This document shows positions 596-24,328 of a stretch of DNA of 25,608 nucleotides, one piece after another. This DNA is from Halocafeteria seosinensis (Eukaryota; Sar; Bigyra; Bicosoecida). The translations under genes were made by a program, and so were the position numbers. Under the pieces are notes generated by a model, which made no database searches, had not been told where the DNA came from, and was given only the letters and a program-made list of their open reading frames with translations. Numbering within the stretch: the first letter of the stretch is position 1; each line of letters opens with the position of its first letter. The stretch is from the NCBI GenBank assembly GCA_001687465.1, contig LVLI01000548.1:1-25608 (forward strand), given 5' to 3'.

Positions 596-3552
596 ATGAT
601 AACACATCTGGCCCTGTCCATCGCCCTGTTTCTAAGCCTTGGTGAGATTGCTACGTCAGGTTAGTGATCATATGTTGGGTTTGTAAGGTAACCACGGCGG
701 CAACGTCCATCTCTCCCCGTACAGCCAACTGGGTACAGCTGAACGGTCAACCAGAGCAAAATTACATTACGAGCAGTGCACCCGAGCTAACAGCTCGTTG
801 GGGAGCTGCCTACGTAACCATAAGAATACAGAGTACTGAGAATGGGCGTCCGATAGCAGCTGATAGGCAAGATAGACTGTTTGTATTAGGAGGAGAAGAC
901 TGGCAGGCAGAAGTCGGAAGCGCAGGAAGGAAACGCAACGATGTCTGGTATACGGAGGGGGCCCGTACGTAATACTTCTTGCTAGTGGGTGAGAGTTTTA
1001 GGCTTTATTAAGCCGTGATTCGATGTATTGCAGGAATCGAAACGATAGAGAAACTCATTGAGAAGACCCAATTTAATGAGCGAAGGCCTCGTATCGTTTC
1101 AAAGACTGAATGGAAGCAATCCCGAAGCGATAGCGTACCACCTTCGAACATTGACTACCGACAATGGCTCTGTTGTGTTTTAGATCTTCAAACATGGTGC
1201 GTAGACCCTGCGGATCCTCAAAGGTCTTCGGTCAGCTGTACTCCCACCGACCCCTTTTTCGATGAAAGAAGATGGTCACCTCGTTCCATGCATCAGGCTT
1301 TGAATGTAGATAATACAATATTAGTAATGGGCGGACTGGCACACAGTCTCAGTCCTCTCACCGATAGAGAGTCTAATTCGGGGTTACTTGGAGAAGATGG
1401 TGGCTGGCAAACAACTACCCCAACAAACGATGTCTGGAGGTCTCCCACAGGAGTTGAATGGGAACTAATCAACCCCGGTTGTTTTGTTCCGCAACAGAGC
1501 CACATTGATCTACCCGGGCAATATCGGTTCGTTTGCTCAGATGACAACGACTGCCTAGGTCAAAGGCTTGGCCAAGCATTTTGTTTCCAAGGGTCTTGTG
1601 TGTGTAGTATGTGGAGTCCACGGTGGAATTTTGGCTCTATATCTTTGAATGGTAAACTGTACGTGTTAGGAGGAGCTACCTGGATCAGCCGGCACAGGTG
1701 TAGTGAATATGCGTGTGGGGGCGGTTACATTCGCTATTTGAATGACGTTTGGGTTTCGTCGGACGAAGGCGTTTCTTGGGCTCTGTTACTTGAGCCCGCC
1801 CCATGGACTCCCCGGTTAGGGTTTTCTCTTGTGGAGTATGACAGCGTCGTGTACTTGATGGGCGGAAAGGGCTCCGAGAGTGGGAATGAAGAAGACGTAG
1901 AATTCTTTAATGATGTTTGGTTTACTCACGATATGCTACACTGGGAGAAGAATAACAGTGAGCAACCATGGGCACCGAGAGCTAACTCCCATTCAACCAT
2001 TCACGATGAGAAGATCTTCTTATATGGAGGGCAAGAATTCATTCCTGAATTCCCGCCAACCCCTACCCCTTTACCACATGAAAGGGTTAAGCGGGCAGTC
2101 GCAAACAAGGAGGTAATCAATGTACGTCCTCAGCCTAGTCCTTCCCCATTCGTTGACCCACGTCCAGGTGAATCGTTTTCCGGGAAACGAATGAGAAGCA
2201 AGAACGATATTTGGATCTTTGATCCCAACGATCCGTCCAAAGGTTGGGTTCAAGAACCTGCAGATCCTTTTGTTGCAGCAAATTTTGTGTCAATCCATGA
2301 TGAGTGGGGGGAACACCCGCTGTTAAACATCACAAGTGTTGTAAAGGAACGATTGGCCACGCATAATATTTTTACCGTGGCAGACCTTGCAGAGGCATCC
2401 AATGACGTTATTCTCCATGCAATTGACAGTAATGGTCCGGAGTCGCTGTCCGATATCTGCTTCTACAAGGTATGGGCGGATGATTTAAAGTATCGGTGCA
2501 CATTGCAGGATAGGGGATTTGATGGAGACTTTATCCGAGACCTTGTCATCGACGATAGTTTTGCTTTTGCGCGAAACTTAGGAAAAGAGCGGAGAGAAGA
2601 ACGTCGAGAGAACGACCCGTGCTATAAAGTAAAAGGCATGACTGCTGAAGACGTCCCGGAAATTCTCAGATCAGTGCAGTGCGTTGCTAGGCCATCTTCC
2701 CGGTATAGTGGGATTTTTGCGAGTATGAGAAATGTTTTGTATATCGGACTCGGATCTCAAACGACAGAAAAATTACATAACGATTTTTGGCACCGCGATG
2801 ATTCATTCCCAAGCGCTCGCATCGTCAGAGCTCCTGCTTCAGCTTCTGCAGACTCCGTTTTCGACTTCGAATCTGATAAGGAGCATGTTATTTTCCAATA
2901 TAGGCTGTTCAAGCTGATTGAAAACGAAAATGGTGGTTTTCAGCCGTTTGAGGATGGCTCCGCCATCCTAGCACGCAACTGGTCTGCTGCACTACCTCCC
3001 CTAAATTTGGAGTCTGCACTTGGTGAGGGGTTTTGGCGATTCGAAGTTCGAGCGGTTGATGCAGCGGGAAACAGAGATAAAACCTCAGAAGTGGGAAGGA
3101 ACGTGCACGAATGGGAATTTGTACCAACCATACCATACTTGCTTATAATATTGCTATCACTTTTATTCATAATAATTATCGTAGCTCTATTGCTTTGGTA
3201 CCGCAAGTATCGGAAGAAGAAAGCAAGACAAAAATATGCTCTTGCTCGGATGAAAAGACGCCTCAAGATCGTAGAGTCCGGAAAATATTCTCAGCAGGAA
3301 CAGCACTTACGAAGAGGTGGAAAAGTGGAGGGTAGAAAGAGAAAAACAAAAGAGCAAGTGATGCAAGAGAAGCTTGAGCATGCAGGCGCGGGAGAGGGTG
3401 ATAAAGCTGTGAGGAAATCGACACGGAGGAAGACTGGGCGTTCGACTGCTCGTGGAAATGACACGTCGCGAAGCAGGAGCGGTGATGATAAGAAGTCGAA
3501 GAAGAAGAAAGATAAAAAGAAGAAGCGCTCCAAAAGTAAGAAGGAAGCGTAA
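596..3552 (+). CDS. Kelch-repeat type I membrane protein with signal peptide
   Basis: Three exons: 596-659, 725-964 and 1034-3552 (introns of 65 and 69 nt, GT-AG, both phase 1), giving about 940 residues. Exon 1 encodes a classic signal peptide starting MITHLALSIALFLSL. The ectodomain carries Kelch-type blades, each a hydrophobic strand ending in GG followed by (L/N)NDVW: near residues 90-115, 200-240, 315-350, 375-400 and 440-510. A cysteine-rich EGF-like insertion (residues about 269-294, pattern C-x5-C-x8-C-x4-C-x-C) interrupts the blades. A helix-hairpin-helix-like stretch lies near 531-557 and an Ig/FN3-like segment ending FEVRAVDAAGNRD near 698-788. A 22-residue membrane helix (about 802-824) is followed by a very basic cytoplasmic tail ending in Lys/Ser/Arg runs. 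Fold and topology are supported by sequence; a cell-surface recognition or adhesion role is only inference. Confidence 0.85.
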
Positions 3553-3947: not shown

Positions 3948-5457
3948 ATGTCAGGCATTGCGTTCCGAGTAAGTACTTTGTCTTGGTACAGAGGAGGCAC
4001 CTGTTAGAGGTTATACTACCTCTCTCTTGTCCTTGAATCATGTTCATAACTTCTTCCTCTCTATGCAGGGCACTGGGGCTGGCCAGGATCCTCGTTTTAA
4101 GGACAAAACAAAGCGCTTGTTGAAAAATATCAAGTCCTCAGCCCCCAAGGAGTATGAAAAGAAGGTAGGAACTAAAGCACTATACTGCATTCATTCGGTG
4201 ATATATCATGAAGTATTGGCCATTGATACATGCAGGTGGATATGCACAAAGTCAACAAAACCATGATTGACAAATGGATTGCGCAAAAAGTGACAGGTAA
4301 GGACTTGCTAGCTGGAGGACCTTGGATTCCTCCTTCCTCTAGCACGAAGATGGTTCTCGCAGAAATATTAGGATTTGAAGATGAGGTCGTGGTAGGACTA
4401 GTATGTAATACACTAGACCAGAGAGTATGTAATGACGGGGATGGAATTGATGTTGCCGAAAATCGGTTATCCGAAACTCTTTTGTTTTTTGTTTTTGCAG
4501 CACCCTGATCCGAAAGAGTTGCAATTAAATTTGACAGGGTTTTTGGAAAATAATAGTGCATCGTTCGTATTGGAATTATGGAAAATGCTATTGTCTGCTC
4601 AAGACAACCCCACAGGTATTCCCGAACAAATGCTGCAGCAGAAAAAAGAGGAACTAATGTCTAGATCTAACGAAGGCGAAGAGGTCATGTCGAAGATCAG
4701 TGATCGTATTGTTTCTCAAGGGCAAGGAAAAATACAGAATTCAACATCAGTAGGTGGAAAAGTCAACGAAGCTGTTGCTGCAGCTAGACGATATAGTGGC
4801 AGGAAGCGTGATGACTTTGACTCTGAAGAAGATTCGAATGCAGAAGGAGTAGTGGAGACGGACGAGTTCGGTCGCGCTACCCGACGAAAGCGCAGAGAGA
4901 AGTCGGGAGATGAGTATAGGAGATCGTCATATTCATCTCGTAAGCATTATGAATCAAGACAAGAACGACGTTCGCGTTCTCGTTCCCGTTCCCCTCGCAG
5001 AAGATATCGATCTCATCGCCGACACAGTCGTTCGCGATCGGGTAGCCGCGACCGTCATCGTCGGCGTCGGAGGTCCTCGGATGATAGATCTGAAGACGGT
5101 AAGTCTGGCAGTCGAAGAACACATCGTCGACATCGCCATGAAGATAGAGAAGAAGAAAAAGAAGACAGCAGGAGCTCGAAACGCCGTGAAAGAAGAAACC
5201 GGAGCGAAGACAGCAGCAGTGATGAGGAGCGGAAGTCGAGCGATGAGAGCTCCCACCGGAAGAAAAGTGATAAAAAAGAGCGCTCTACCCATGACGAAGA
5301 ACCAACAACTGGTGATGAGAAACCTGTTGCGAACGGTAATGAAGACTCTGGAGAGTCTAAGAATTCTCAAAATGGTGCTGATGCCCAAGAACAGGCAGCA
5401 ACGGACTCAAATGATGATAGATCCTCGATCGGAGAGGACAGTGGCCCTAAAGAATAG
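3948..5457 (+). CDS. SRRM1: PWI-domain splicing coactivator (SRRM1/SRm160-like)
   Basis: Five exons: 3948-3968, 4069-4164, 4236-4296, 4363-4424 and 4501-5457 (introns of 100, 71, 66 and 76 nt), giving 398 residues. The N-terminus MSGIAFRGTGAGQDPRF resembles the start of animal SRRM1. It is followed by the PWI domain (about residues 25-135) with motifs VDMHKVN, DKWIAQKVTEILGFED and LQLNLTGFLENN. The C-terminal half is an RS domain rich in SR, RS and RRH runs, then an acidic Ser/Glu tail. SRRM1 works in the nucleus as a bridging coactivator in the spliceosome and exon junction context, and its PWI domain binds nucleic acid. At 398 residues it is much shorter than human SRRM1 (about 900), mostly because the RS region is shorter. 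Phases agree at all four junctions. It converges on the LC8 gene. Confidence 0.93.
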
Positions 5458-6226: not shown

Positions 6227-7552
6227 ATGCGGAATGTTTTTCTTCTGCCATCCTTGTCAAAAGGATTGCAGAGGGGAGCTCTTAGAAGAATATCCACTCG
6301 ACGACTCTTCCACTCCACCCACGATTCGGGCTCGGCGAATAAGGTTGGATCGTTACAATCGCCTGGCGATGGATATTTACGAACAGTAACCGTGTTCCCA
6401 GGTCATGGGTATGTTGCGGTTTTCATGAGCGTCTGCTTGTTTTGAGATATTCCTTCGTTTGCGGTTGGACTCCAGCATCGGACCGGAATTGACAGCTGCT
6501 GCGCAACGCGTGGTCGATGCTACCAATGCTCCTGTTGAATGGGAGGTAGTGGATAATATCACGAACAAGCTTACTCCGGAAGCCTATGCGAGCCTACGCA
6601 AGAATCATGTGGCGCTGAAAGGAGAATTCCAAGTTGGTAAGTCGCCCGACAACCGCAGCATTTCTGTTGCAACTTACACATGTCTGGGACTTGCAGGTGT
6701 TGGGAAAGGAAGTATGAATTCGATCAACGTGGAGTTGAGGAGAGAAATGGAACTGTATGCTAATGTTGTGCATTCGTTTCCTCTGCCTGGTATGTTCCCA
6801 ACGCGCGTTAGTCACTCCGGATCTAATGGAGTCACGCTAATGATGAATATTCAGGTACAAATCCTCGGCACGAAGGGGTAGATATAGTCATGATCCGTGA
6901 AAGCACAGAAGGAGAATACAGCGGCATGGAGCACGAAGTGGCACCGGGAATTACGGAAGCATTAAAAGTCATGACGAAAGCGGGCACCCGTAGAATAGCG
7001 GAGTATGCGTTTGAATACGCGTACTTGAATAGAAGAGGAAAAGTTACAGCTGTGCACAAAGCCAACATTATGAAGCGAGCTGATGGATTGTTTCTTGATA
7101 GTTGTCGCGAAGTTGCTAAGAATTATCCCAACGTCAAGTATGAAGAAGTGATCGTTGACAACTGCATGATGCAACTCGTCTCAAAACCTCAACAGTTCGA
7201 TGTAATGGTGACTCCTAACTTTTACGGGAGTCTGGTGTCAAATGTCGTTGCTGGGTTAGTTGGTGGACCTGGTCTTGTTCCCGGTGCCACAATTGGCAAG
7301 GAGACGGCCATATTTGAACAAGGTGCTCGCCATCTTGCCTCTGACATAGCGGGAACAAATACGGCCAACCCGACAGGCATGCTCTTCGCTGCAGTGATGA
7401 TGCTGCGTCACATACGGCTGCCTGTATTTGCCGACAGTGTTGAGGACGCGCTGTTCTATGTATTAGAACATGGCCCTCGTCCTCGGGATATTGGAGGAAA
7501 CGCTTCCCTGAGCGAGTTTGTCGATGCCGTCTGTGAACACATCAATAAATAG
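6227..7552 (+). CDS. IDH1: NAD-dependent isocitrate dehydrogenase, regulatory-type subunit, mitochondrial
   Basis: Four exons: 6227-6408, 6476-6636, 6697-6789 and 6855-7552 (introns of 67, 60 and 65 nt), giving 377 residues, the normal length. The first 30 or so residues are Arg/Ser/Leu-rich without acids, as in a mitochondrial transit peptide. Family motifs follow: IGPELTAAAQ, IRESTEGEYSGMEHE, TAVHKANIMKRADGLF, VDNCMMQLV, QFDVMVTPNFYGSLVSN, AIFEQGARH and NPTGMLFAAVMMLRH. The match to VDN-x-x-MQ-x-V and FE-x-GA/SRH points to the non-catalytic regulatory subunit of yeast and plants. Where catalytic subunits carry an Arg in ANVRP, this protein has ANVVHS. It would pair with a catalytic subunit encoded elsewhere, in the TCA cycle. 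One oddity is FPGHGIGPE in place of the usual PGDGIGPE, with the change in exon 1 itself. Confidence 0.92.
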
Positions 7553-7559
7553 AAGTTCA

Positions 7560-10343
7560 CTATTGGGAAGTTTCTTGGTTCTTCTGTTGTGTGCCACTCC
7601 TAGATACTCGTAAACCAGGGTGGCCTAAGGCTACCCTTCGCAAATCGTTCATCATTTTTTCTTCCTTCTTTTGTTTATCATCTTCGGATTCTATGGGCGC
7701 CAGCCTGCGTAGCTTACCCGAGACGATGCGGTAAGAAGACTGAGCAAGATCCGATGTAGAACTAGATTTCTTTTGTAGAAGCTTCGACATCATTAACTCG
7801 TGCGGTTGGGGCAGCGAACTGATATGCTGGTTTAGTGGGTCTTCATCAACCATCTGTAGTGCTTGAGAAGCTTTGCTCCCTTTGCGAGTGCTGTTTTCAC
7901 TCTCAATCTCAAGCAAACGTCCTTCGCCATCAGTAGCAGTTTTGTTGCTATTTTCGTCTTCACTAGCCCCTGACTCCTTTGTATCCTGGCTGTTCGCCAC
8001 TCTGTCCAATCTCCTTCGCCTATGCATTTTCTGTCGATCGCTCTGCCCGCGAGATTTCCGCAACTGGATATCAAGAGCCGTTTTCCCGATGTCTTCCTTT
8101 GCCACTGATTTGTCAAAGAGAACCTGCTTGGAAATTTCTCTCTGATCGTCACGGTACTCAAAGCATCGTTCATCACATGATTTCCGAGTCTGAGCGAGTT
8201 TTCGCTTTATTGAAGTCTGCGAGTCAAATATATTTTGGGCTGTTTCCACACGAGGTTTCCGCGTCCGTACAGTCGACAAATCACCAACTTGCGCCCATGG
8301 AACAGGCACGTATCGCTTAACCGTGTATGAGCGCCCTCCAGTAAGAGACTTTCCCGGGGGAAGGGTGCGCTGAACCAGTGCCCCAGTATCCGTCAAGCTG
8401 AAAGAGGTGGTCAACTCTTTCTTTTTCGTTCGTTTCCGAAGAAGATGCATAGCTGCATCATGGTTCGTTGTGTTGCCGATATTGAACTTGTCTACGCTGT
8501 CTATGTCATCTTCGTCAGTCTTGCCGCCCCCTCCGCGACGGTTTCCTGACCCAAACGGACCAAACGCTTTTCGTGAATCGTGAAGCTCTTTGAAAGACTT
8601 TTCCGTGGAGTTTGGGGACTGTCCGGTAGACTCTGGCGATCCAGGCAGAGAGGAAAACGACGGAGGACCTAAAGAACTTTGTTGCAGCTTTTCATATTCT
8701 TCCTGAGGCTGAGCAGCAACTGACAGTTTGCTGGTGGATCTCATGTTCTGCTTCTTATTCTTTTCGAGAATGTACGTGAGGGCTGTGGCTTGGTTTGCCG
8801 CCGGTATTAACAGTTCTTCGGGAAGCGAACGCAAGAGTTCTACCCGAAAAGTATCTCGGTAGCCTAAGAGTTCCCGTTCTTCCTCAGTTGTGTACTTGAC
8901 GGGGAAGTCGATTTCGCTGGCAGGGAGATAAAAGTCATCCACTTCACTCTGTTCCGGCTGCTTCGCCTTGAATGCAACCACCGGCGCCTCCATCGCACTC
9001 GCCACTGAAGAGCGACGTTGGTTCTTGTTCGCATCCGGGTCATCCAACGTAGAGTCCACACTACCCCTGCGTCGGGGAGTGGGCGGAGGCCGCGGAAGGT
9101 CGTCCGGAAAGCACTCCTCCATTTTACTCATCACTGTAATTGCGGTTAGTTCCATTCCAGTCATTATTCTTGAGACAATCATCGCAATTCTCAGTTTGAA
9201 GGCTGCATCAAAATGTGCTCTGGATCCCGGCACTCCGTACCAGAAGCTTAAGAACACGCCGTTGGCGAGGACAAAAGGGAGTACATCAAACATCTTCGGG
9301 TTGCTTTCACTCAGCCACGAGTGGAGCTTGATGTGAGATTTGCCAATACTTTGTAATAATATCTCTTGGCTGTATTCTGTATCAGCTTGGAAGATGTGGC
9401 AATAAACAAACCAAAACAAGTCGAGCAGCGTTGCCTGAACTTGGTTGGATTCTAAGACTCTCAGAAACTTCTTCCGAGAAGGACGAAACCTTTCCGGAAC
9501 ATGTCTCTTTGCTAGTTCCACTCTCCATCCAAGCAATTTTAAGATCCAAGCGACGGGTATTTTGAAGGGAGGATCGTCCAATGAAAAATTCACTTGCTCA
9601 ATCAACACACCCATCCGAGGTTTTGAAAACTCTGCACATTTATTTCTGAATTCCGCGACAGCAGACATGCGTTCTGCCGAACCGTAGTTGTAATTTGTTT
9701 CACCGGTAAGATAGCCTGTGCGGATGCGTTTTTTATTCAGTTCATTCTCGAATGCTTCCTCCTCGCCTCCTTCCGATGTCTCCTGCCGAGCCCCTTCTTC
9801 GTCTTGGCTACCGGTCGGTGTTTCAGCGCCTTCATCGGATTGCTTTTTCTTCGATGATGTCTCGTCCTTACCCGCGACTTCTTCATCTCGTTGCTGTTGC
9901 TTGCTTCGAGAATCCTCTTGTTGTTGTTTCTTGGAATCGCGCACTCGACGCGCCTCAATGACAGAGTATCGACTGCTGCTGCTTTGATCAACATCAGTTT
10001 CGGACCCTTTGAACCGCGTTTGAGCAGTTGCAACCAACTGCTTGACCCTATTGGAAATCCGAGAGTTCATCTCATCTGTCACACGCTGCCTTTGTTCCAA
10101 TGTCATGGCATTATCCTGCATAATGCGTCGCAGTTCTTCAGCGTTAGCCTCTTCCTCCGCCCCGTGCCCATCCTCGCCTTCCTGAAATCCCGTCGCCACG
10201 AAATCATCATCCTCCCCTTCGGCAGTAGTAGTACCACCGTATTGACCAGTGGAGTGGCCTCTACTTGCTCCTTGGCGCCCTGTATGACGGCTTGTCGTTT
10301 GCGACGCGCCACTTAGGGTGCTGTGTGAAGCCGCGCGTCTCAT
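7560..10343 (-). CDS. FAM227 / FWWh-domain-like protein
   Basis: Single-exon gene of 927 residues starting at the ATG at 10343-10341 (MRRAASHSTL). A longer frame would need a GTG start at 10355. The only globular part is about residues 225-405. It contains an aromatic helix LDLFWFVYCHIF, a following helix with LLQSIGKSHIKLHSWL, and a hydrophobic stretch LPFVLANGVFLSFWYGVP, then a phenylalanine-led helix. This order (FW-aromatic helix, paired amphipathic helices, small aromatic helix) matches the FWWh domain of FAM227A/B as I know it, but the assignment is by eye. The rest is low-complexity: acidic and Gln/Lys-rich at the N-terminus, Ser/Lys/Arg-rich and basic towards the C-terminus. FAM227 proteins occur mainly in ciliated eukaryotes and have no established biochemical activity. 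The stop codon lies only 7 bp beyond the IDH stop on the other strand. Confidence 0.62.
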   Translation of the reverse strand: MRRAASHSTLSGASQTTSRHTGRQGASRGHSTGQYGGTTTAEGEDDDFVATGFQEGEDGHGAEEEANAEELRRIMQDNAMTLEQRQRVTDEMNSRISNRVKQLVATAQTRFKGSETDVDQSSSSRYSVIEARRVRDSKKQQQEDSRSKQQQRDEEVAGKDETSSKKKQSDEGAETPTGSQDEEGARQETSEGGEEEAFENELNKKRIRTGYLTGETNYNYGSAERMSAVAEFRNKCAEFSKPRMGVLIEQVNFSLDDPPFKIPVAWILKLLGWRVELAKRHVPERFRPSRKKFLRVLESNQVQATLLDLFWFVYCHIFQADTEYSQEILLQSIGKSHIKLHSWLSESNPKMFDVLPFVLANGVFLSFWYGVPGSRAHFDAAFKLRIAMIVSRIMTGMELTAITVMSKMEECFPDDLPRPPPTPRRRGSVDSTLDDPDANKNQRRSSVASAMEAPVVAFKAKQPEQSEVDDFYLPASEIDFPVKYTTEEERELLGYRDTFRVELLRSLPEELLIPAANQATALTYILEKNKKQNMRSTSKLSVAAQPQEEYEKLQQSSLGPPSFSSLPGSPESTGQSPNSTEKSFKELHDSRKAFGPFGSGNRRGGGGKTDEDDIDSVDKFNIGNTTNHDAAMHLLRKRTKKKELTTSFSLTDTGALVQRTLPPGKSLTGGRSYTVKRYVPVPWAQVGDLSTVRTRKPRVETAQNIFDSQTSIKRKLAQTRKSCDERCFEYRDDQREISKQVLFDKSVAKEDIGKTALDIQLRKSRGQSDRQKMHRRRRLDRVANSQDTKESGASEDENSNKTATDGEGRLLEIESENSTRKGSKASQALQMVDEDPLNQHISSLPQPHELMMSKLLQKKSSSTSDLAQSSYRIVSGKLRRLAPIESEDDKQKKEEKMMNDLRRVALGHPGLRVSRSGTQQKNQETSQ

Positions 10344-10614
10344 TGCCTCGTACACCGCCGTTTATTTCCATGCACTACCATCTCTTTTATTCACACCAAC
10401 TAGCAGCCACCAACCAGTCAATTCGTCTCAAGGAGCGAGATATACAGGGGAATGGGCTCCCTGAGTCGTCTAACGTCATTGAAGTCGCAACTTTTCATCT
10501 TCACAAAGTCCATTCCAAGGTGTATATTAGTCTATTTAGTCGATTACCCACCGCGAAATTGTGTGGAAACGTTTGGTACAACCATTCGACAAGTATTGTG
10601 GAAGTGGGAACAAA
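10344..10614. promoter_or_regulatory. divergent promoter region, FAM227-like / CNX1
   Basis: About 270 bases separate the start codons of the minus-strand FAM227-like gene and plus-strand CNX1. No coding signal fits splice structure here. Shared or back-to-back promoters are inferred from position only. Confidence 0.35.
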
Positions 10615-12793
10615 ATGGAGCGAGTGAAAGAGGTGCCAATGATCAGCTACGATGAAGCGCGGCGGATAGTCATTGAAGAGTCGCATAAAGTATTCCAACA
10701 GAGAAGTGCTCAGGGTCATAACATCGAGCATGTCGTGCTGCGCAAGGAGAATGTGACGCAGGTAAGTTAGATCGTGCCGGAGAAGGACCAACGTCGTCAG
10801 GAGTGGAAGAGTTTGTCTGCAGCTAGTGGGACGCGTGCTCGCCGAAGATGTCACATGCCCCGTAAGTCAATGAATTTCCAACCAATTCCACGTGTGTACA
10901 GTTTGTGCAACGGCACTGACAAGCGCACTGCAGACTGACGTGCCCAAATACCCCTGCTCGATCATGGATGGCTGGGCGGTCAAATTTGGATCGGACAAGT
11001 CTCTCACTGTATGTAGGCTAGTCTCCAAGAATTCATCGCTGCTTCGGCATTGTATGCACAACCCTTTGTACAATGGATCGCAGTACTTACGGCGAGGCAG
11101 CGCGCGTGCTGGTGACAAGGAACAGATATCATTGACCGAAGAGAACACTTGCACGTATGTGACTACGGGGGCTGCCATTCCTCAGGGAACGGACGCTGTG
11201 GTTAGGATAGAACATTCAAGAGTGGAAAGCGACAAAGTGCACATTTGCAAAAATGACGATCTTAGAAGCAAGGCAAACATTCGACCAATAGGATGCGATA
11301 TTGCCAAAGGAGATGTTGTGTTGCAAAAACTGAAGACACTGGAGGCTCAAGACATAGGAATTTTGGCTCACGCAGGAGTTACCAACATTGCTCTCTATAT
11401 TCTGCCAGTCGTGGGCATTTTTTCGAATGGGAACGAGCTGTATGACCCGTTTGACATTAACTCAGGTAGCCAGTCAGAAACATGCTCCAGTCATCGGTTT
11501 GTAGCAGACTCAAACAGGTACAGCCTTAAGACGCTTCTGAACGAGAAGGGATACGGGGCAATAGATTACGGTATTTTGCCGGATGACTATGACGCTTCTT
11601 TGCACAAAATGCAGCAGATGTCTAAGGAATGCGATGTTATAGTCAGCTCTGGTGGAGTGAGCATGGGTGATCACGACTTTATTAAACCAGTTCTTGAGCG
11701 TCTTGGAGCTGTTAAATTTGAAAAAGTGAAATTGAAGCCCGGAAAACCAACAACATTTGCGTGTGTCGATCCCCAGGAATATGGTCAGTGTGCAACGTTG
11801 TTTTTTGCACTACCGGGAAATCCTGCATCCTGTTCTGTTTGCTTTCACCTTTTCGTGCTGCTCTCTCTGAACATCATCAAGGGCTTACCGGAAACTCACG
11901 CTGGATGTCCACGTGCTACAGTTACTACGATTTCTGGCCTAAGCCAGGATCCGGTTAGGCCGGAGTTTCACCGAGCGTACACGTTCTATAACATTATCGA
12001 GAAGACGTTACCAGGAGGTATAACACTGCCGCCCGGGCTAATGGCGGCCTCCACTGGTGCACAACGCTCTTCAAGAGCTATGAGCATGTTGAGAGCCAAC
12101 TCGTTATTGTTCGTTCCGCCGGGAGACTCTTCGTTCGCCCCAGGAACTCTTGTAGAGGCCCTGCTACTCGGTCCCTTAGGTGCTCCTCTTGAAGGTGAGC
12201 TCGTAGATATGGCTCATGGAGCCCTAAGAGAAGCTGACTGCAAATGTCACTCTGATACAATCGGTAACGATCAGCAAAAGAAAGCTTATACCGTCGGCGT
12301 GGTAATTGTCAGCGACCGTGTTAGCAAAGGAGAAATGCGTGATGAAGTTTCTGAGACGCTGGAGGCAACTTTTCGAAGCGAGAAGGCTAGGTATAACATT
12401 CTTCAGGTTGCCTGCGTACCAGATGAGAAGGAAGCGGTTAAAGCTTGTTTGAAGGAATGGAGCGACTCAGGGATTTTTGACGAGAAGGTCGATCTGATTC
12501 TTACAAGTGGTGGGACAGGGTTCGCTCCACGGGATATAACTCCTGAAGCGACCGACGAGGTACTTGAGCGGAAAGCACCAGGTCTGCAGCATCAGATAAT
12601 GAAATATGGATTAGAAAAGACGCCGTATGCGGCGTTATCGCGGGCTTCTGTCGGCACACGGAAGAGTACGCTGATAGTCAACATGCCAGGAAGTCCCAAA
12701 GCGGTTAAAGAGTATATTCAAGCTATAGGGAGCTTGCTTCCGCACGCGTTAGAACTGTTACAGGACGCAGAGCCCACATGTCACAACAAATAG
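10615..12793 (+). CDS. CNX1: molybdenum cofactor synthesis protein CNX1 (MoeA-MogA fusion)
   Basis: Three exons: 10615-10761, 10823-10861 (only 39 nt) and 10934-12793 (introns of 61 and 72 nt, phase 0), giving 681 residues, close to Arabidopsis Cnx1 (about 670). The MoeA-like E domain comes first: MISYDEARRIV, PCSIMDGWAV, TTGAAIPQGTDAVVRIE, VIVSSGGVSMGDHDF (about residue 299) and FALPGNPAS. The MogA-like G domain occupies about 513-675: VGVVIVSDRVSKGEMRD, ILTSGGTGFAPRD (about 586) and NMPGSPKAVKEY. The G domain adenylylates molybdopterin and the E domain inserts molybdate, completing Moco for nitrate reductase, sulfite oxidase and xanthine dehydrogenase type enzymes. E-then-G order is as in plants; animal gephyrin is reversed. 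The start at 10615 is preferred because the reading frame upstream lacks family similarity. Confidence 0.93.
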
Positions 12794-15381: not shown

Positions 15382-16784
15382 ATGGTACGTAATTGGTCGT
15401 GATCCTTGCTCCTCAAAAGGTCTGACTCTGCAGGGGGCTTACCCCAAGCCCCTGGGCCGCTGGCGTGAGGGCAGCCGAAGGGGCGTGGGTGCCCCTGATG
15501 TTTTTTGTTTTTTTGAGAATTGGGGTTATCAGCCTATTTGATGTGTTTATGTCGTTATACGAGATGACTAACCGTACTGACACATTTCTACAGGCGGCTG
15601 CACGTCCTTTGGTGAATGTATATGATGGGACCACGGGCAAGAAGTCCCATACTCTGCCCTTGCCGTCTGTGCTGACGGCCCCCATCCGCCGCGATGTGGT
15701 GCATTTCGTCCATTCTAACATGGCCAAGAACTCCCGTCAGGCGTATGGTCAAGCCCGCGAAGCTGGACATCAACACTCTGCTGAATCCTGGGGTACTGGA
15801 AGAGCTGTTGCTCGTATTCCTCGTATTTCTGGGTCGGGTACTCACGCTAATGGTCAAGGTGCTTTCGGAAACATGTGCCGTGGAGGACGTATCTTTGCTC
15901 CCATCAAGAGCTACAGGAAATGGCATCGTAAGATCAACGTTAACCAGAGAAGATACGCCACTGCCTCCGCTTTGGCTGCTTCTGCTGTGCCTCCTTTAGT
16001 CATGGCTCGTGGCCACAAGATCGACAACTTGGAGGAAGTGCCTCTGGTCGTCTCTGGAATTGAAGGTATCAAGAAGACCAAGGAAGCCACCGCTGTTTTG
16101 GAACGATTGGGAGCTTTCGAAGATGTACAAAAAGTGAAGGATACAAAACGCATCCGTGTCGGTAAAGGAAAGGCTAGAAATCGCCGCCATGTGCTGCGCA
16201 AGGGACCTCTGGTTATTTTCAACGAGAATAACGGTATCGAGCAAGCGTTCAGGAACATCCCTGGTGTCGAATTGTGCTCTGTCGATAGAATGAACTTGCT
16301 GCAGCTCGCGCCTGGTGGACACATGGGCCGTTTGATTGTTTGGACTGATGGTGCGTTCCAGAGACTCGAGGGTCTCTTTGGGTCTCTTTCCAAGAAGTCC
16401 GAGGAAAAGCACAACTACCAACCACCGCGTCCGTTGATGAACAACGCTGACTTGGCTCGTATCATCAACTCGGAAGAAGTGCAGAAGAAACTCCGCCCCA
16501 CAGTCAAACAGAATAAGCGTCCTACTCATAAGAAGAATCCTCTGAAGAACTTGGGTGCTATGGTCAAATTGAACCCCTATGCCATGACTCGTAAGCGTAA
16601 TGAACTGTTAGCACAAGAGGCTCGTAAAGAAGGACGTGCACAGAAAGTCCAGAAGAAGCGGGCTATGTCGAAAGAGAAGCAGAAGGCTATCAAGCAATCT
16701 GGTCTTGAGTTCTACAACTCATTGAAGAACGACACCTACACCTTTGGGCGACATGGCGATGCCCGTGCTCCCCAAGAGGAGTAA
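15382..16784 (+). CDS. RPL4: 60S ribosomal protein L4 (uL4)
   Basis: Two coding exons: 15382-15384 (ATG alone) and 15594-16784, joined across a 209-nt intron, giving 397 residues, the usual eukaryotic length. The product starts MAAARPLVNVYDG, as in plant L4. Family signatures are VHFVHSNMAKNSRQAYG, GTGRAVARIPRI, GQGAFGNMCRGGRIFAP, RRYATASALAASAVPPLVMARGH (split here only by my quoting), LVIFNENNGIEQAFRNIPGV and APGGHMGRLIVWTDGAF. The C-terminus is a Lys/Arg-rich extension, also typical of eukaryotes. uL4 lines the peptide exit tunnel with a long internal loop. A longer open frame reading back into the intron to 15465 is not supported because it lacks family similarity. An AATAAA signal follows at 16810-16815. 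Confidence 0.96.
15385..15593 (+). other. long structured first intron of RPL4
   Basis: The donor gtacgt directly follows the ATG and the acceptor is ctacag. A plant/yeast-like branch sequence gactaac lies at 15566-15572. At 209 nt it is two to three times longer than any other intron in the window. Its middle is GC-rich and can fold: CAGGGGGCTT (15431-15440) pairs with AAGCCCCTG (15446-15454) with one bulged G, and GGGGC (15480-15484) pairs with GCCCC (15491-15495). A T-rich run follows. No complete C/D or H/ACA snoRNA boxes could be matched. Confidence 0.6.
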
Positions 16785-17078: not shown

Positions 17079-18400
17079 TCAGTCAAATCGGAAAGAGGTC
17101 ATCAACATGGACTGCAGGGCGTGACCATCATGAATTGTGGACGCATTCAGATGACTCTTCCTTGGGCTGATAGCCTGTGTTGGGGCTACTTTTGCGCTAT
17201 TGCCTTCCTTTGAAAATTCCCCGAGTTTTCGAACCGCGTAGGGATCAGCTGCCGCTGCTGCCACCAACAACGGGATAAAATGTTCTTCCCTTGGATGTGC
17301 GCGCCGAGCATGAGGCGCTTTTTCCCATTCTAGTAGATATTTGGCCCACAATTCTGGATTCTGTGTCACAGTGGTTCGTAACCACTCCCCAAACTCCGAA
17401 GCCCACTTTGGTATTGCTCTCAAGGGATCACCCAGCTCTGTCAACGCATGTGTTGCCTGTCCGCTTCCCAAAATGAGCACATTCTCCTCGCGTAGAGGTG
17501 CTAGCATAGCTCCTATCTTCAGGTGAAGCGAGGGTTTGAGACTCGCACAGAGGGAAAGTTGTACGACAGGGATATTTGCGTCGGGAAACCTGCACACCTC
17601 GGGTTTTGAAGTAGACGCTGGGAACCAATGCGGAAATAAGTTGACTCGCATCAACTTACATTAGCTTCAGAGGGACGAATACACCGTGATCGAGTCCTCG
17701 TTTAGGGTTGAGCTCAACTTGTACAGGGCCAGATGAAACGAAGCCAGTTTCAATTAATTCCTTTACCCTATTTGCAAGTTGGGGGGATCCTCGGCATTCA
17801 TAAGTAAGATGCGGTGCGTATGTCGACGAAGGAAAACCGTAATAATCATAAACTAACTCTGGTTTCTCCGCCGACGTAACTTCCTGCACCAGCGTATTAC
17901 ATCAGTGGAAACCTATTTCCGGAGACATTAGTGTTGATTTGCGTAGAACGTACAATTGGTCTATCACTCGGGGTCTCCCAATGCGCCGAAATGACTCTGA
18001 ATATTTGTTCCAAGAGAGGTACGATTGTACAATGACATTCTCCCAGTAGGTACACTTCGGTCATGACCACTTACAGTATAGCGCGCGGGAGAGAGTCTAA
18101 CTGGGTCCGTCGAAAGTCCCGCAAGAATTCTGCCGCATCGGAATGCTTGTCCACTTCACTGAATTTGGGGAACTCTTTGCCGTCCAAGAAGAAGCTAGGT
18201 CCCGCCCCGTGACTGATGAAAAAACTCGGGAACTTATACGTGGTATCACTCATGGTCGTGGTATTAGTTCCTGCAACCGAGATGTCTTCCGAGACCTGTA
18301 CTGAGACTTCCGAGGATCTTCGCGGTTCTCTATTTTCCATGCTAGCACACGATACAAACGGCCAAATTATAAACAAACAGATCCATACACACCGCCTCAT
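17079..18400 (-). CDS. DODA: DODA/LigB-type extradiol ring-cleavage dioxygenase with signal peptide
   Basis: Four exons, minus strand: 18400-18075, 17996-17954 (43 nt), 17883-17660 and 17589-17079 (introns of 78, 70 and 70 nt), giving 367 residues; family members are usually about 260-280. The extra length includes a hydrophobic N-terminus (MRRCVWICLFIIWPFVSC) resembling a cleavable signal peptide, and then about 35 polar residues. The enzyme domain starts near FPSFFISHGAGPSFF. Metal-site and core motifs are SHG, VISAHWETP, YDYYGFPSSTYAPHLTY, RGLDHGVFVPLKLMFPDA, IPVVQLSL, VLILGSGQATHAL and RRAHPREEHFIPL, so all expected His/Glu positions are present. Such enzymes open catechol rings (4,5-DOPA in betalain plants, YgiD in bacteria); the natural substrate here is unknown. 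It is divergent from the large fusion gene, 179 bp away. Confidence 0.88.
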
Positions 18401-18579: not shown

Positions 18580-21500
18580 ATGACTGCCGAAACGGCGACG
18601 AGAGGTGGCCATGGAGAGGAGGAGAGTGCTCCGAAAGTCTCCGCCGCCACGCTTATCCCCCTTCGGGATGCCGCCGATGGGACCGTGGAGGTGCTGATGG
18701 CGCAGATCGAGGTGTTGGACGCTCTAAAGTCGACAAAGGATACTTTGCGTATTCAGCCGTTCGCAGGCGAACTGCGCTTTTTTGGTGGAGGGAGTCGAGG
18801 AAAGACCACCGCGGAAACACCCATGGAAATAATTTCTAGGTTAGGTTGCTCGCTTGCCAAAGTGGAACTTATGTCGAGTTCAACTACGAGGTGTTTCGCT
18901 TCCTTGCAGGGAACTGCGTGAACTGGGGTTCCCCGTTCACGAACGACAGCGACTAAGTATACATTTATTCAATCGAATGGCATTTCACTCCGAATATTCG
19001 AGGAAACAGTATGACGTCCTCAGTTATGTGGGACTTGTTCGGGAAAACCCAGTCGCTTTGAATCCAGACATAACCTTTATCAACGCGCTTCTGGAATCAA
19101 CTCGACGTCGACGAAATGAGCTCATTGACTCTGATGAATTCTGGCATCTTCCCAAAGACAAACGCGCAAAGTTTGCAACGAAAATTCACCAAGTATTATG
19201 GCTCCCACTCGAAGAAGCAATGTCGTTATGCGATCCCGGAGGAGCAGCATACGTAAACGCGTTCCAACAAGCCGAATTTGAAAAATTTGGTTTGGGATGT
19301 CGTGACAGGGCGATTGGGACTTGGAAAACTGTAAAACTACTGCACGAGTTGAAGAGCATTGACGACATCAAGAAACGTTTAAGCTCTTACGAAGGAGCTT
19401 CGGAACCTTCGATGGGTTCTCCTTCATGTCTATCCGAAGGCTCAAATTCTAGCACCGCTGGCTCGTACATAACGGCAGCGGAGGTTCAAAGGAGGCAGAA
19501 AAGGCTTCATACGGCAGGAAACGTAGACACAAAATCGTCTGCATACAAGGTGCTGTCATACAATCTGAACGTGCTCCCCTTCGAAGCAACATTTCATAAT
19601 GTGGGTGCACTGCACGGAGGTAACACTGTGCAGCGCTTAGAACTTTTCGTTTCTGACTTATGGAGGCGAGTCGTGGACGGAAAGCCCATTGAAATTGTAG
19701 CACTCCAGGAAGTCTTTTCGAGTCCATTTCTACCGATGCTGTGCTACCAACGAGCACTAATACGACGCCTGCGGCATTTGGGCTACAATTACATAGTCCA
19801 TCCGTCGAGACCAGTTTTGGGGAGAATGCTGGAAAGAAGTGTATGGACAGATAGTGGACTTATTATTGCATCTCGGTACCCCATTGTGGAGGAAGCAGCC
19901 TATTACTTCCGCCATAGAGGTACAGGTGTAGATTCTGGAGCTCAAAAAGGGGCTCTCTTTGCGAGAATTGAAGTGGACAAGGCCCTTGACCTCTATGTCG
20001 ATATATTCAATGTGCATCTGCAAGCTACGCACAATGATGGTGGACCCTATGCAGCAATCCGCAAAGCACAAATGTTCGAACTCGTGCGCTTCATCAAGCA
20101 AAAGACGAGTTGCTTCTCATATCCCTACCTCCTAACCGGGGACTTTAACCTGGACGCTATTCGTACCGAAACGTGTCTTGAAACTGGATTAGCATATTTT
20201 ACTAGAGCAAGTCCTGGCCGCAGGTCTCCAGATACTCCGGAGGAAGATGTACAACCAGTCCAGGCAGACAGCAACGAATATAAAGAACTTGTCAACATTT
20301 TATCCATTGCCGGAGGCTCTATTCCGGTAGTGAATGAGAACCAGAAGCAATTTGCAAGAGAGGAATCTATCGACGCTGGAAACGAAGCTTTATTACCCTG
20401 CACTCCTGGAATAATAGATCTTCTGAAGGAGAAACATGGTGGTCATATCTCGACGCGTCCACCACGTCAGCGCTTTCCGAAGAACATCGAGTATATGATG
20501 TTTCACAAATATCCACAGAGGTTGGATTATGTATTTATGACGCATGGAAGACTAGGGCAACTTGTGCCTGTTGTTTCTGATACGTCTATTCTTCGTTTTC
20601 CGACAAAAAGCGTGCGGGCTACTGCTGAGAGATATGTTTCAAGCCTTCTCCCAGAAGAAATATCCTCCCTCCCGTTCGAGCCCGCACTAGCATGTAGCTT
20701 CCAAACTGCCTCTGCAAACGTGAGTGATCACTATGGTATCATTGTATTCCTCACTAAAGATAATTCTTTGGGAACCTGGGAGTTTGTTCCTCCGGAAATT
20801 GAAGTAATTGAAGAAAGAAGTAGGAGGTCGGCGTCAAGTACCGACAAAGACAGTCCTCCCTGCGACCACAATGCCGACATCGCGGAGAAAATTGAGACTT
20901 CTCAAACGTTCCGAAGTGTTGGTTTCGCCAGGAGTCTTGCATACAAATGTAGTCTACCCTACCTGTACTGGAGGTTTTTTGCGTGGAACTCTCGGTCTTG
21001 GATGCTACTCTCTGTATTCATGGCGGTCGCTGCGTTTCTCTCAACTTTGGGTCTGGGCTCTACGTTTGCATACCTATGGGGGACGATAAGCTCCTCCGAA
21101 CAGTACGCAGAGAGGGTGCAGATTGCATTAAAATTGATCACTTCGGTTGTTTTGTTACTTACCCTACGGCGATTAAGACCGCTCCGATTTGCACGAAGCA
21201 CCGGCTGGAGAGTGTCTCAGCACTTATTTCTTTACGTTGAAAGCGCGTCTTCTTCGGTGGGGTTGTCAGTTGTTCCGTGGGTCGGCGCTGGTGACTATAC
21301 CCCACCATTGATACACTCACATTCGTCTTACCCTAGGCCAGTGTCATCAGGAAACGAGGAAGCTTCTTTTCATGATCAAGCCAATGAAGCAGTGAGGCAA
21401 CTGCTTGCTGTCCAAGGCATTCAATTCTCCCCCGAAATTAGCAGCAGCCGTAACTTGAGTTGTTCTTCTCAATTGTGGAAAGCTTGGGCCCGTCCCTGTC

Positions 21501-23908
21501 GAAGTGTACGCGGAGCCGTTGCGTCCATACAAGCGTCTATTTCAAGGGAGCGAAGCTTTCCTGTGCATTGGATGTCCCAAAAGGGGAGCTTGATGCCCCT
21601 CGGGTCTTACGATAGAGAATTTGTCCAGAAAATACTCAAGAATGGGTTGTCCTCGGAGGAAGTACGAGCATTCGGTTGCGATAGACGAGGCCAAGTCTCC
21701 ACAATGTACGACGCGTTTTTGAAGAGTGTTTTGACTCATGGGTATCAAAATTGTTTGGGATCACCAACTATGGGGGCTTCAGGAGATTGCCCCAAGTCTA
21801 CTTCTGGGATCCCTCACTACGCAACAGGGTCTACAGACCCAGCGACAACATCTGCACTAGGTTCTAGTGGATTTTCGTGGCTAACGTACGACGATGCATT
21901 GTCACTTGCTACTTTTGCGGGCTCAGGTCTCCTTCGATTTGGACGCCTCGTTCCTGGGGATCGCATCGGCCTACTTATTGAATCGAGGCAAAAAGAGTGG
22001 GCACTTGTAGACCTTGCTTGTCTGATGTTCTCCCTTGTATCAGAATGCTTGTTCGTCCCTGGCGAGCACTCATTTACAACACTATTAAGCTTGAGTATGG
22101 CGCGAATGTATGTGGTTGATAAGTCGTGGACGAGTCTGCTATTGAACACATTAGCGAACCAACGACGCGACTCTGACGGAGTCGTCGTTGTACAGGTTGA
22201 GCCAGTGGCGTACGAGCAGCAAATGCTTGCGCATCAGCTAAACATTAAGCTGTTCGACTTTGATTTCTTAGTGGAAGCAGGAAAGAGTTATCCATTGAGG
22301 CATACTCCTCCGTTGGAAACAGAAACTGCTACGATACTCTTTCGTGAAGATGTCGACTCTGAGGATTCTGGCGGAGTGACTTTCTCTCCTATCACCTTGT
22401 CTCATCGTGAGGTCCTCAAGCGCGTTATCCGTTTCAGAAAAACCAACGTGGGCTCGCTATTGACTACTTCGGATATTCATTGTTCGTACTTACCTTGTCC
22501 ACATGAAGCGGAAAGATGTGTGATACATACAGCTTGGTCAATTGGCATGTCTGTTGGGTTTGTTCCTTTTGATATGGATTCTATTTCTACACATTTGCGA
22601 GAGCTACAACCGACGTTTCTTCTTTCGACTCCGAGGTTGATGGAGGCACTTTACACTCATTTCCTGAAAATTCGGAGCTCATGGACTTCTGCATATCGTA
22701 ATTTATTTCGTCATTTCTTTTTGAAGAAGAGCAATGCCTTACCTGAACGAGAATCATTGCAAGACCGTAGGTTCTTGGACGATATGCTATTCTTTGGAAA
22801 GTTGGCAGACAGAGCGGGGACAAACTATTTGAAGTGCATTCTTGTTGTCATATGTGGAAGCTCTAATGGAATGCTTACCCGGCCAGACGTGACTGAATTT
22901 GTCCAGGTAGCGTTATGTTGTCCCGTAGTCCACTGTATCACATCTCCTGACTCCGGAATTTATGGAATCTCCAGATTTGATTCAACTCCTGTGACACGCC
23001 AAAGAGCTTCTTTGTATTTCTTCATTCGCTCATTTTTTCCCCTGCTAAGCAGTACGTTGTACGATAGTACAGCTAGCGCTTCTCCGGAAAAGTGTACCGG
23101 TAAGCTCTCCTCGGCGAGGAAATGCGTCATTCGGCGGGCTGCTCAGGGACTGGAGCTTACACTTGCTACGGATATCCTCCAAGGTGGATCGGTACACGAA
23201 GGAACTCCGGGGTGGGGAATGCTGCCAGACAAGGACGTATCCACAGCGTGCGGATTGACGAAACTGCGGATCAACTACCTTCCTGGCGAAAATGAGATTG
23301 TATACATGGGCAACCGCTCTTCGGAAATCTTGGTGCCAACGTCGATACTCCTAAGTGTGGCAGAGCGTTATGCAGAACTTCCGCACTCTCTTAGACAGTT
23401 GTTAGACCAAAATAAGACTTTATGTATTCCGGGAGAGTATGCTGAGATGCTAGCTCAAGTCTCTTGTGGACTGCTGAGGCAGGTCTGGCTTCAGTGCCAG
23501 AGACCATCGTTGGGAAACGACGCCTCAGTTAGAATGGTTGGAGTGGTTGACAAAGAACAGTGCTATCAATGGGCATTGAAGAATCTGGCGGTGTCAGGTA
23601 GCCCCGAGGAAAGTGATCCAAGTGAGCTGACTATTCAAACGATTTGTTCGGCACCTCGCACTGTTTGCCACGTTTTGTCTTCGATTCAGGAGGCCGGCGA
23701 CCTTTTGGTCAACGATTGTTGCATTGAAAAGGAATTGAACGAATCCTACATTAAAGGGGTTCAATGCATCGTTGGTCTATTGCTGGAGTCAATTACTGAT
23801 CTGGAACTTACTGCTGAACCATTTTTTGCGGGAAACTCTCTCGCAACACCGATCTCTGAATTGAATCGATCGAAAATTCATGGGATCTCATTTTCCAAGC
23901 GTTCCTGA
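18580..23908 (+). CDS. fusion: degenerate Nudix - neutral sphingomyelinase-like phosphodiesterase - 2 TM - pseudo acyl-CoA synthetase
   Basis: Two exons, 18580-18839 and 18910-23908 (70-nt intron, phase 2), giving 1752 residues. Residues about 20-260 look like a Nudix fold: LRFFGGG, then E-x7-REL across the splice junction, RELRELGF, and later VLWLPLEEAMSL. The Nudix box is two residues short. Residues about 300-705 are an endonuclease/exonuclease/phosphatase-fold domain of neutral sphingomyelinase type with all catalytic motifs: LSYNLNVLPF, ALQEVF, DSGLIIASRYPI, GAQKGALFARI, FNVHLQATH, LLTGDFNLD, RLDYVFMTH and SDHYGI. Two hydrophobic helices lie near 781-803 and 825-842. Residues about 1010-1750 align by eye along a whole long-chain acyl-CoA synthetase: TMYDAFLKSV, LTYDDALSLATFAGSGLLRFG, YLPCPHEAERCV, LQPTFLLSTPRLMEALY and the C-terminal EPFFAGNSLATPISEL. 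The adenylation motifs are eroded. It is probably a membrane-bound lipid phosphodiesterase with regulatory flanking domains (inference). Confidence 0.85.
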
Positions 23909-24246: not shown

Positions 24247-24328
24247 GTCAGCGTGCCCGAGTGGTTAAGGGGTCTGACTTGAAATCAGATGGGCTTCGCC
24301 CGCGCAGGTTCGAATCCTGCCGCTGACG
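24247..24328 (+). tRNA. tRNA-Ser (anticodon UGA)
   Basis: 82 nt, intronless, CCA not encoded. The acceptor stem GTCAGCG pairs with CGCTGAC, followed by discriminator G. The D region is CCCGAGTGGTTAAGGGG. The anticodon stem TCTGA/TCAGA encloses loop CTTGAAA with anticodon TGA at 24280-24282. A long class II variable arm GGGC-TTC-GCCC is present. The T arm is GCAGG-TTCGAAT-CCTGC. The long variable arm and anticodon both indicate serine (reads UCA). The tDNA contains the internal A-box-like and B-box (GGTTCGAATCC) promoter elements. Confidence 0.97.

What the first reader, a model, noticed from the sequence alone, without database searches (positions are those of the whole stretch)
18580..23908. 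Three-enzyme-fold fusion: Nudix-like, neutral sphingomyelinase-like, acyl-CoA synthetase-like in one membrane protein
A single spliced frame of 1752 residues carries a Nudix-like N-terminus, a phosphodiesterase with every expected sphingomyelinase-type motif (NLN, LQEVF, GDFNLD, RLDYVF, SDHYG), two adjacent hydrophobic helices, and a complete long-chain acyl-CoA synthetase-like region. I do not recall this architecture as characterised. Linking a ceramide-releasing hydrolase to an acyl-CoA/nucleotide-sensing module would couple sphingolipid turnover to fatty acid or nucleotide state. The single 70-nt intron lies in the Nudix part, so the remaining 4999 nt are one uninterrupted exon, which makes an annotation-merge artefact unlikely.
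Basis: partly seen in the sequence, partly recalled or inferred. Interest (0 to 1): 0.82.

Follow-up and report, generated by a model that had tools for sequence, protein, structure and literature searches.

The report
Sphingomyelinase fused to dead acyl-CoA synthetase
A single protist gene joins an apparently working membrane-lipid-cutting enzyme to a fatty-acid-activating enzyme that has lost its active site; the same odd pairing turns up in distantly related single-celled eukaryotes, so the dead half probably senses or scaffolds lipids and is kept for a reason.

The parts
18580..18839 (+). Exon 1: start codon and first part of the Nudix-like domain
   Evidence: Open frame; transcript protein P0042 starts at this ATG and reads through the predicted splice
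18840..18909 (+). 70-nt intron, GT...AG
   Evidence: Sequence; junction matches P0042 and homologous residues in P0006, P0030 and others
18910..23908 (+). Exon 2: rest of the gene to the stop codon, 4999 nt
18628..19399 (+). Residues 17-250: Nudix-like domain, box degenerate (RELRELGF); the span includes the intron
   Evidence: pLDDT of 10-residue blocks mostly 85-97, lowest 66; ortholog P0028 hits Pfam NUDIX at 22.7 bits, cut-off 21.1; alignment A4; no hit for this protein itself
19538..20767 (+). Residues 297-706: neutral-sphingomyelinase-type phosphodiesterase (Exo_endo_phos)
20138..20155 (+). GDFNLD, metal/catalytic motif
20975..20980 (+). T6 run where the two transcript proteins imply 7 T (frame conflict)
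   Evidence: single copy in the genome
20993..21166 (+). Residues 782-839: two hydrophobic helices, likely membrane hairpin
   Evidence: Hydropathy; helices in the model
21677..23899 (+). Residues 1010-1750: acyl-CoA-synthetase fold, catalytic motifs lost (pseudo-ACSL)
22334..22405 (+). Residues 1229-1252: position of the ATP P-loop (A3), here ILFREDVDSEDSGGVTFSPITLSH instead of a TSGTTGxPKG-type loop
   Evidence: against canonical rows

Best explanation
One gene encodes a membrane-anchored neutral-sphingomyelinase-type phosphodiesterase whose C-terminal half is a catalytically dead long-chain acyl-CoA synthetase. Shown from sequence and models: the architecture, the intact phosphodiesterase residues, the retained synthetase fold, the lost adenylation motifs, and the same state in distant eukaryotes. 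Inferred: the phosphodiesterase hydrolyses the head group of a sphingophospholipid. The two helices form a hairpin that puts both large domains on the same (cytosolic) face. The pseudo-synthetase binds acyl-CoA, fatty acid, CoA or a partner protein without adenylating anything, and so regulates or positions the hydrolase. The Nudix-like domain (or pantothenate kinase in some relatives) would be a further accessory CoA/nucleotide-related module.
Against: No ligand, activity or localisation data; the regulatory role is inference. Some relatives keep single catalytic residues (A5 Glu in 18 of 37; P0026 keeps A3 Lys, A5 Glu and A7 Asp), so loss is not equally complete everywhere. A7, A8 and A10 counts rest on subsets because 12, 8 and 19 of 39 rows are gapped there; parts of the model near A6-A7 (model 704-746 and 761-805) have pLDDT under 50. 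In two pantothenate-kinase-bearing relatives the phosphodiesterase itself deviates (P0035 D498 to N; P0037 N307 to S and K433 to Y). Transcript proteins P0038 and P0042 imply a frameshift between the two halves in this species. The length limits of the protein search favour long proteins. The substrate is not shown.
Confidence: 0.6

Rival explanations
1. The pseudo-synthetase is a scaffold rather than a sensor: it recruits ceramide synthase, an acyl-CoA-binding protein or an organelle contact, without binding a small ligand.
For: Loss of ATP-site residues with retention of fold; accessory modules are swapped between lineages: Nudix-like N-terminus in one large group, PF03630 pantothenate kinase in 7 relatives
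Against: Motifs recalled as acyl-CoA-synthetase pocket elements are partly kept: the Ser, Glu and Arg of SYLPLAHxxER in 34, 34 and 38 of 39 rows
Confidence: 0.25
2. In this species the two halves are separate products: the gene really has 7 T at 20975, giving an 863-aa Nudix-like/phosphodiesterase protein, and the synthetase-like half is made only by +1 frameshifting, slippage or another start, or is decaying.
For: Both transcript-derived proteins need 7 T; no full-length 1752-aa entry was listed
Against: The genome has 6 T, single copy; the downstream frame stays open for 977 aa, and its residues 930-1640 (P0001 numbering) are 60% identical to P0002; P0002 reads in one frame across the very site (LPYYYIRFFSWNSRSW); the two transcripts overlap here and may not be independent assemblies
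Confidence: 0.13
3. A true bifunctional enzyme: hydrolase plus working acyl-CoA synthetase.
For: Pfam AMP-binding above cut-off, ANL fold
Against: P-loop, A5, A8 and A10 residues absent; the same genome has synthetases with intact motifs
Confidence: 0.05
4. The phosphodiesterase acts on a CoA- or nucleotide-type phosphodiester rather than a sphingolipid.
Confidence: 0.08

Closest known systems
Neutral sphingomyelinase (human 8j2f; nSMase2 SMPD3, 5uvg; bacterial SMase 2ddr)
   Same: Endonuclease/exonuclease/phosphatase fold, same residue pattern, best structural match; two hydrophobic helices after the catalytic domain, as recalled for SMPD2
   Different: Fused to a ~740-residue dead synthetase and, here, a Nudix-like N-terminus
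Long-chain acyl-CoA synthetases (Thermus tt0168 1v25/1ult; canonical ACSL in the same genome, L009)
   Same: ANL fold over both subdomains
   Different: A3 P-loop, A5, A8 and A10 catalytic residues lost; fused to a phosphodiesterase
Adenylation domains of carboxylic acid reductases (5msc, 6oz1)
   Same: Best sequence-profile match of the family (5msc, E 1.7e-45) and first in Foldseek (6oz1, E 6.6e-20)
   Different: CARs show TSGSTGTPKG and YGSTE in the alignment; the family does not
NUDIX hydrolases (PF00293)
   Same: PGE...GG...REL region; ortholog P0028 above Pfam cut-off
   Different: No canonical GX5EX7REUXEEXGU box in this protein; no Pfam NUDIX hit in it
Type II pantothenate kinase (Fumble, PF03630)
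   Same: Seven relatives, Leptomonas among them, carry it behind the same fusion
   Different: Absent from this protein; this genome has a separate PF03630 gene on contig C72
Trypanosoma LAP92 (nSMase3-like, PMC11018031, passages read)
   Same: Sphingomyelinase-type protein in a protist
   Different: Described there as nSMase3-like with armadillo fold, zinc site and C-terminal transmembrane domain; a text search of that paper for acyl-CoA, AMP-binding and synthetase gave 0 occurrences

Membership tests
Neutral sphingomyelinase / EEP phosphodiesterase | Exo_endo_phos domain above Pfam cut-off | tested here: met
   35.5 bits vs 24.5
Neutral sphingomyelinase / EEP phosphodiesterase | Catalytic-type residues N, E, H, D-N, D-H in place (roles recalled) | tested here: met
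   All present in this protein; in 37 aligned rows N305, E354, H456, N500, D693, H694 never substituted, D498 substituted once
Neutral sphingomyelinase / EEP phosphodiesterase | Nearest solved structures are sphingomyelinases | tested here: met
Neutral sphingomyelinase / EEP phosphodiesterase | Bacterial-type SMase equivalog score (TIGR03395) | tested here: not met
   41.4 bits, cut-off 248.2: related, not that equivalog
Neutral sphingomyelinase / EEP phosphodiesterase | Hydrolysis of sphingomyelin-type lipid | not testable with these tools
   Needs assay
Long-chain acyl-CoA synthetase (active enzyme) | ANL fold, both subdomains | tested here: met
Long-chain acyl-CoA synthetase (active enzyme) | A3 P-loop [ST]G[ST][TS]Gx[PA]K | tested here: not met
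   Absent in P0001 and the full window protein; found in 0 of 40 relatives; present at 7 of 10 loci of the same genome, an 8th with a looser pattern
Long-chain acyl-CoA synthetase (active enzyme) | A5 Y-G-x-T-E, A8 D-R, A10 Lys | tested here: not met
   The window protein has I, P, D at A5 Y, T, E; H, S at A8; E at A10
NUDIX hydrolase | Nudix box GX5EX7REUXEEXGU | tested here: not met
   Regex no match; RELRELGF only
NUDIX hydrolase | Homology to PF00293 | tested here: inconclusive
   1 of 8 N-terminal segments scanned hits, that one above cut-off; not this protein; PDB profile search gave 0 hits

The most novel reading that the evidence does not exclude
An ancient eukaryotic protein family in which a sphingomyelinase is gated by CoA/acyl-CoA status through a dead acyl-CoA synthetase. 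Lineages bolt on other CoA- or nucleotide-related modules (Nudix-like in the stramenopile/dinoflagellate/haptophyte/apusomonad group, pantothenate kinase in the group with Leptomonas), giving a direct molecular link between CoA metabolism and ceramide release, possibly as old as the last common ancestor of these supergroups.
Probability: 0.3. Interest if true: 0.85.

Novelty: new variant of a known kind. Interest (0 to 1): 0.62.

Why it matters
A catalytically dead acyl-CoA synthetase kept next to an intact sphingomyelinase in distant eukaryotes suggests that the dead domain has a selected, non-catalytic job. If it senses acyl-CoA or CoA, this would be a direct, testable wire between CoA/fatty-acid supply and sphingolipid signalling, present across protists but unstudied as far as the ten paper searches here show. 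It also questions database names: relatives are called 'Long-chain-fatty-acid--CoA ligase 6' (P0032) or 'long-chain acyl-CoA synthetase' (P0027, P0036) although they lack the A3 P-loop.

Tried and rejected
Rejected: annotation merge (one exon holds both domains; the same fusion occurs in gene models of several genomes and in five transcriptome-derived EukProt ORFs with both Pfam domains: P0020, P0022, P0025, P0031, P0040). Rejected: species-specific oddity (36 of 36 hits carry PF00501). Rejected: working synthetase.

Led nowhere: 18S search of the own genome (not completed). PDB profile search with the N-terminal domain gave nothing, and the structure search list of that model was filled by the phosphodiesterase, so the Nudix fold was not tested by structure. 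Scans of viral contigs and of prokaryote species genomes with A1, two short patterns each, matched 87 and 57 stretches, none confirmed as a relative. A second search with the synthetase region gave only P0038 and P0002 at E 1e-10, with only the candidates sharing most words scored. Papers: 10 searches, listings read only; no listed title or abstract start describes this fusion. Passages were read in PMC11018031, PMC5447177 and PMC5294986. Two papers were not held.

Rows dropped: nine family rows (P0005, P0012, P0014, P0015, P0018, P0035, P0036, P0037, P0041) before the ACS tree; P0018 and P0041 before the counts, and the canonical row L011. A2 (34 rows) left out P0007, P0010, P0033-P0037, P0041 and P0044; the residue counts use the window protein and P0002-P0037. 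P0041 has no residues at the A3 columns in the alignment, so its place among the 40 says nothing.

Full report
Gene structure. The window lies in a 30.6-Mb, 605-contig genome. The frame runs from ATG 18580 through a 70-nt GT-AG intron (18840-18909) to the stop ending at 23908, 1752 aa. P0042, a public protein from transcript GECG01003329.1, is identical over residues 1-777, so start and splice are supported by RNA. P0038, from GECG01003328.1, is identical over the last 977 residues. I recall, without a call confirming it, that GECG01 is the Halocafeteria seosinensis transcriptome; the trees place the gene with its close relative P0002 in a group that also holds Cafeteria, which fits a bicosoecid.

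A conflict to keep in view. P0042 leaves the genome's frame after residue 777, and P0038 enters it at residue 776. Adding one T to the T6 run at 20975-20980 reproduces P0042's end; the first 34 residues of P0038 are the window read in another frame from 20871 up to that run. So both transcript contigs appear to have 7 T. The genome has 6 T and a single copy. The close relative P0002 reads in one frame across the site (LPYYYIRFFSWNSRSW against LPYLYWRFFAWNSRSW). A genome error that happens to restore a frame conserved in relatives is, in my judgement, less likely than a transcript error or polymorphism, but recoding or RNA heterogeneity is not excluded. The run is one of four 6-base homopolymers in the coding sequence.

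Distribution. A search with the phosphodiesterase region alone returned 36 proteins. All 36 carry PF00501 and 33 also PF03372; six carry PF03630. The tool's length window (0.55-1.75 times the 1665-aa query) excludes short proteins, so this does not show that unfused forms are rare. Named sources are Cafeteria, Durusdinium, Effrenium, Prymnesium, Thecamonas, Arcella, Balamuthia and Leptomonas; their higher groups are from general knowledge. A profile search (47 proteins at E 1e-20) added others, including one more with PF03630, P0044, and some with only one of the two domains. Pfam over the 34 rows of A2: Exo_endo_phos 34, AMP-binding 31, Fumble 2, NUDIX 2. Scans of prokaryotic species genomes and viral contigs with two short patterns each confirmed no relative.

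Trees. With 32 family rows and 7 canonical rows the synthetase tree separates the two sets at SH-aLRT 99 (quick method, no bootstrap; two family rows and one canonical row have long branches). Inside are three supported sets: six rows with Leptomonas, five of them PF03630-bearing (99); Arcella with Balamuthia and kin (95); and a third with the window gene, Cafeteria, Prymnesium, Thecamonas and Effrenium (97). The phosphodiesterase tree shows the Leptomonas set (95) and the third set (91), but Arcella's and Balamuthia's groups stand apart there. This fits fusion before these lineages split, followed by joint descent; later transfer cannot be ruled out.

N-terminal domain. Residues about 17-250 are mostly confidently folded and conserved in many relatives of the third set. 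P0028 passes Pfam's NUDIX cut-off (22.7 vs 21.1 bits; 27.7 as the isolated segment); P0030 is below (13.8); P0006, P0008 and P0016 give no hit; of eight N-terminal segments only P0028's hits. The box in this protein reads RELRELGF, lacking the second Glu of EE. It is Nudix-derived at best and probably not a hydrolase.

Accessory kinase. Among the seven PF03630-bearing relatives the recalled glycine motif reads DIGGT in five and DIGSY or DVGNY in the other two, so even that module may be decaying in some. In this genome a PF03630 gene lies apart on contig C72.

Function. The most economical reading is an active sphingolipid phosphodiesterase whose partner domains have become binding or scaffold modules. 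The recurring CoA link (acyl-CoA synthetase fold, pantothenate kinase, perhaps Nudix type) makes acyl-CoA or CoA the first ligand to test. That step is inference.

Noticed in passing
20975-20980: T6 run in the genome; both transcript-derived proteins of this organism imply 7 T, a possible polymorphism, assembly error, slippage or recoding site.
   Followed up: partly
6890-7552, 10892-12793, 15465-16784: Neighbouring ORFs match isocitrate/isopropylmalate dehydrogenase, a MoeA/MoCF (gephyrin-like) protein and ribosomal protein L4: ordinary housekeeping genes.
   Followed up: no
1015-3552, 4432-5457, 7560-10355, 17079-17654: ORFs with Kelch repeats, a PWI domain, an FWWh domain and a LigB-type dioxygenase match.
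   Followed up: no
24247-24328: tRNA-Ser (TGA), downstream of the gene on the same strand.
   Followed up: no
P0022, P0033 (relatives): The C-terminal pantothenate kinase has DIGSY or DVGNY where five other PF03630-bearing relatives have DIGGT.
   Followed up: partly
P0035, P0037 (relatives): In these pantothenate-kinase-bearing relatives the phosphodiesterase also deviates at a key residue (D498N; N307S and K433Y).
   Followed up: partly
P0048 (Entophlyctis luteolus): A gene model named 40S protein S1B with kinase, sphingomyelinase-type and ribosomal domains, probably a merged annotation.
   Followed up: no
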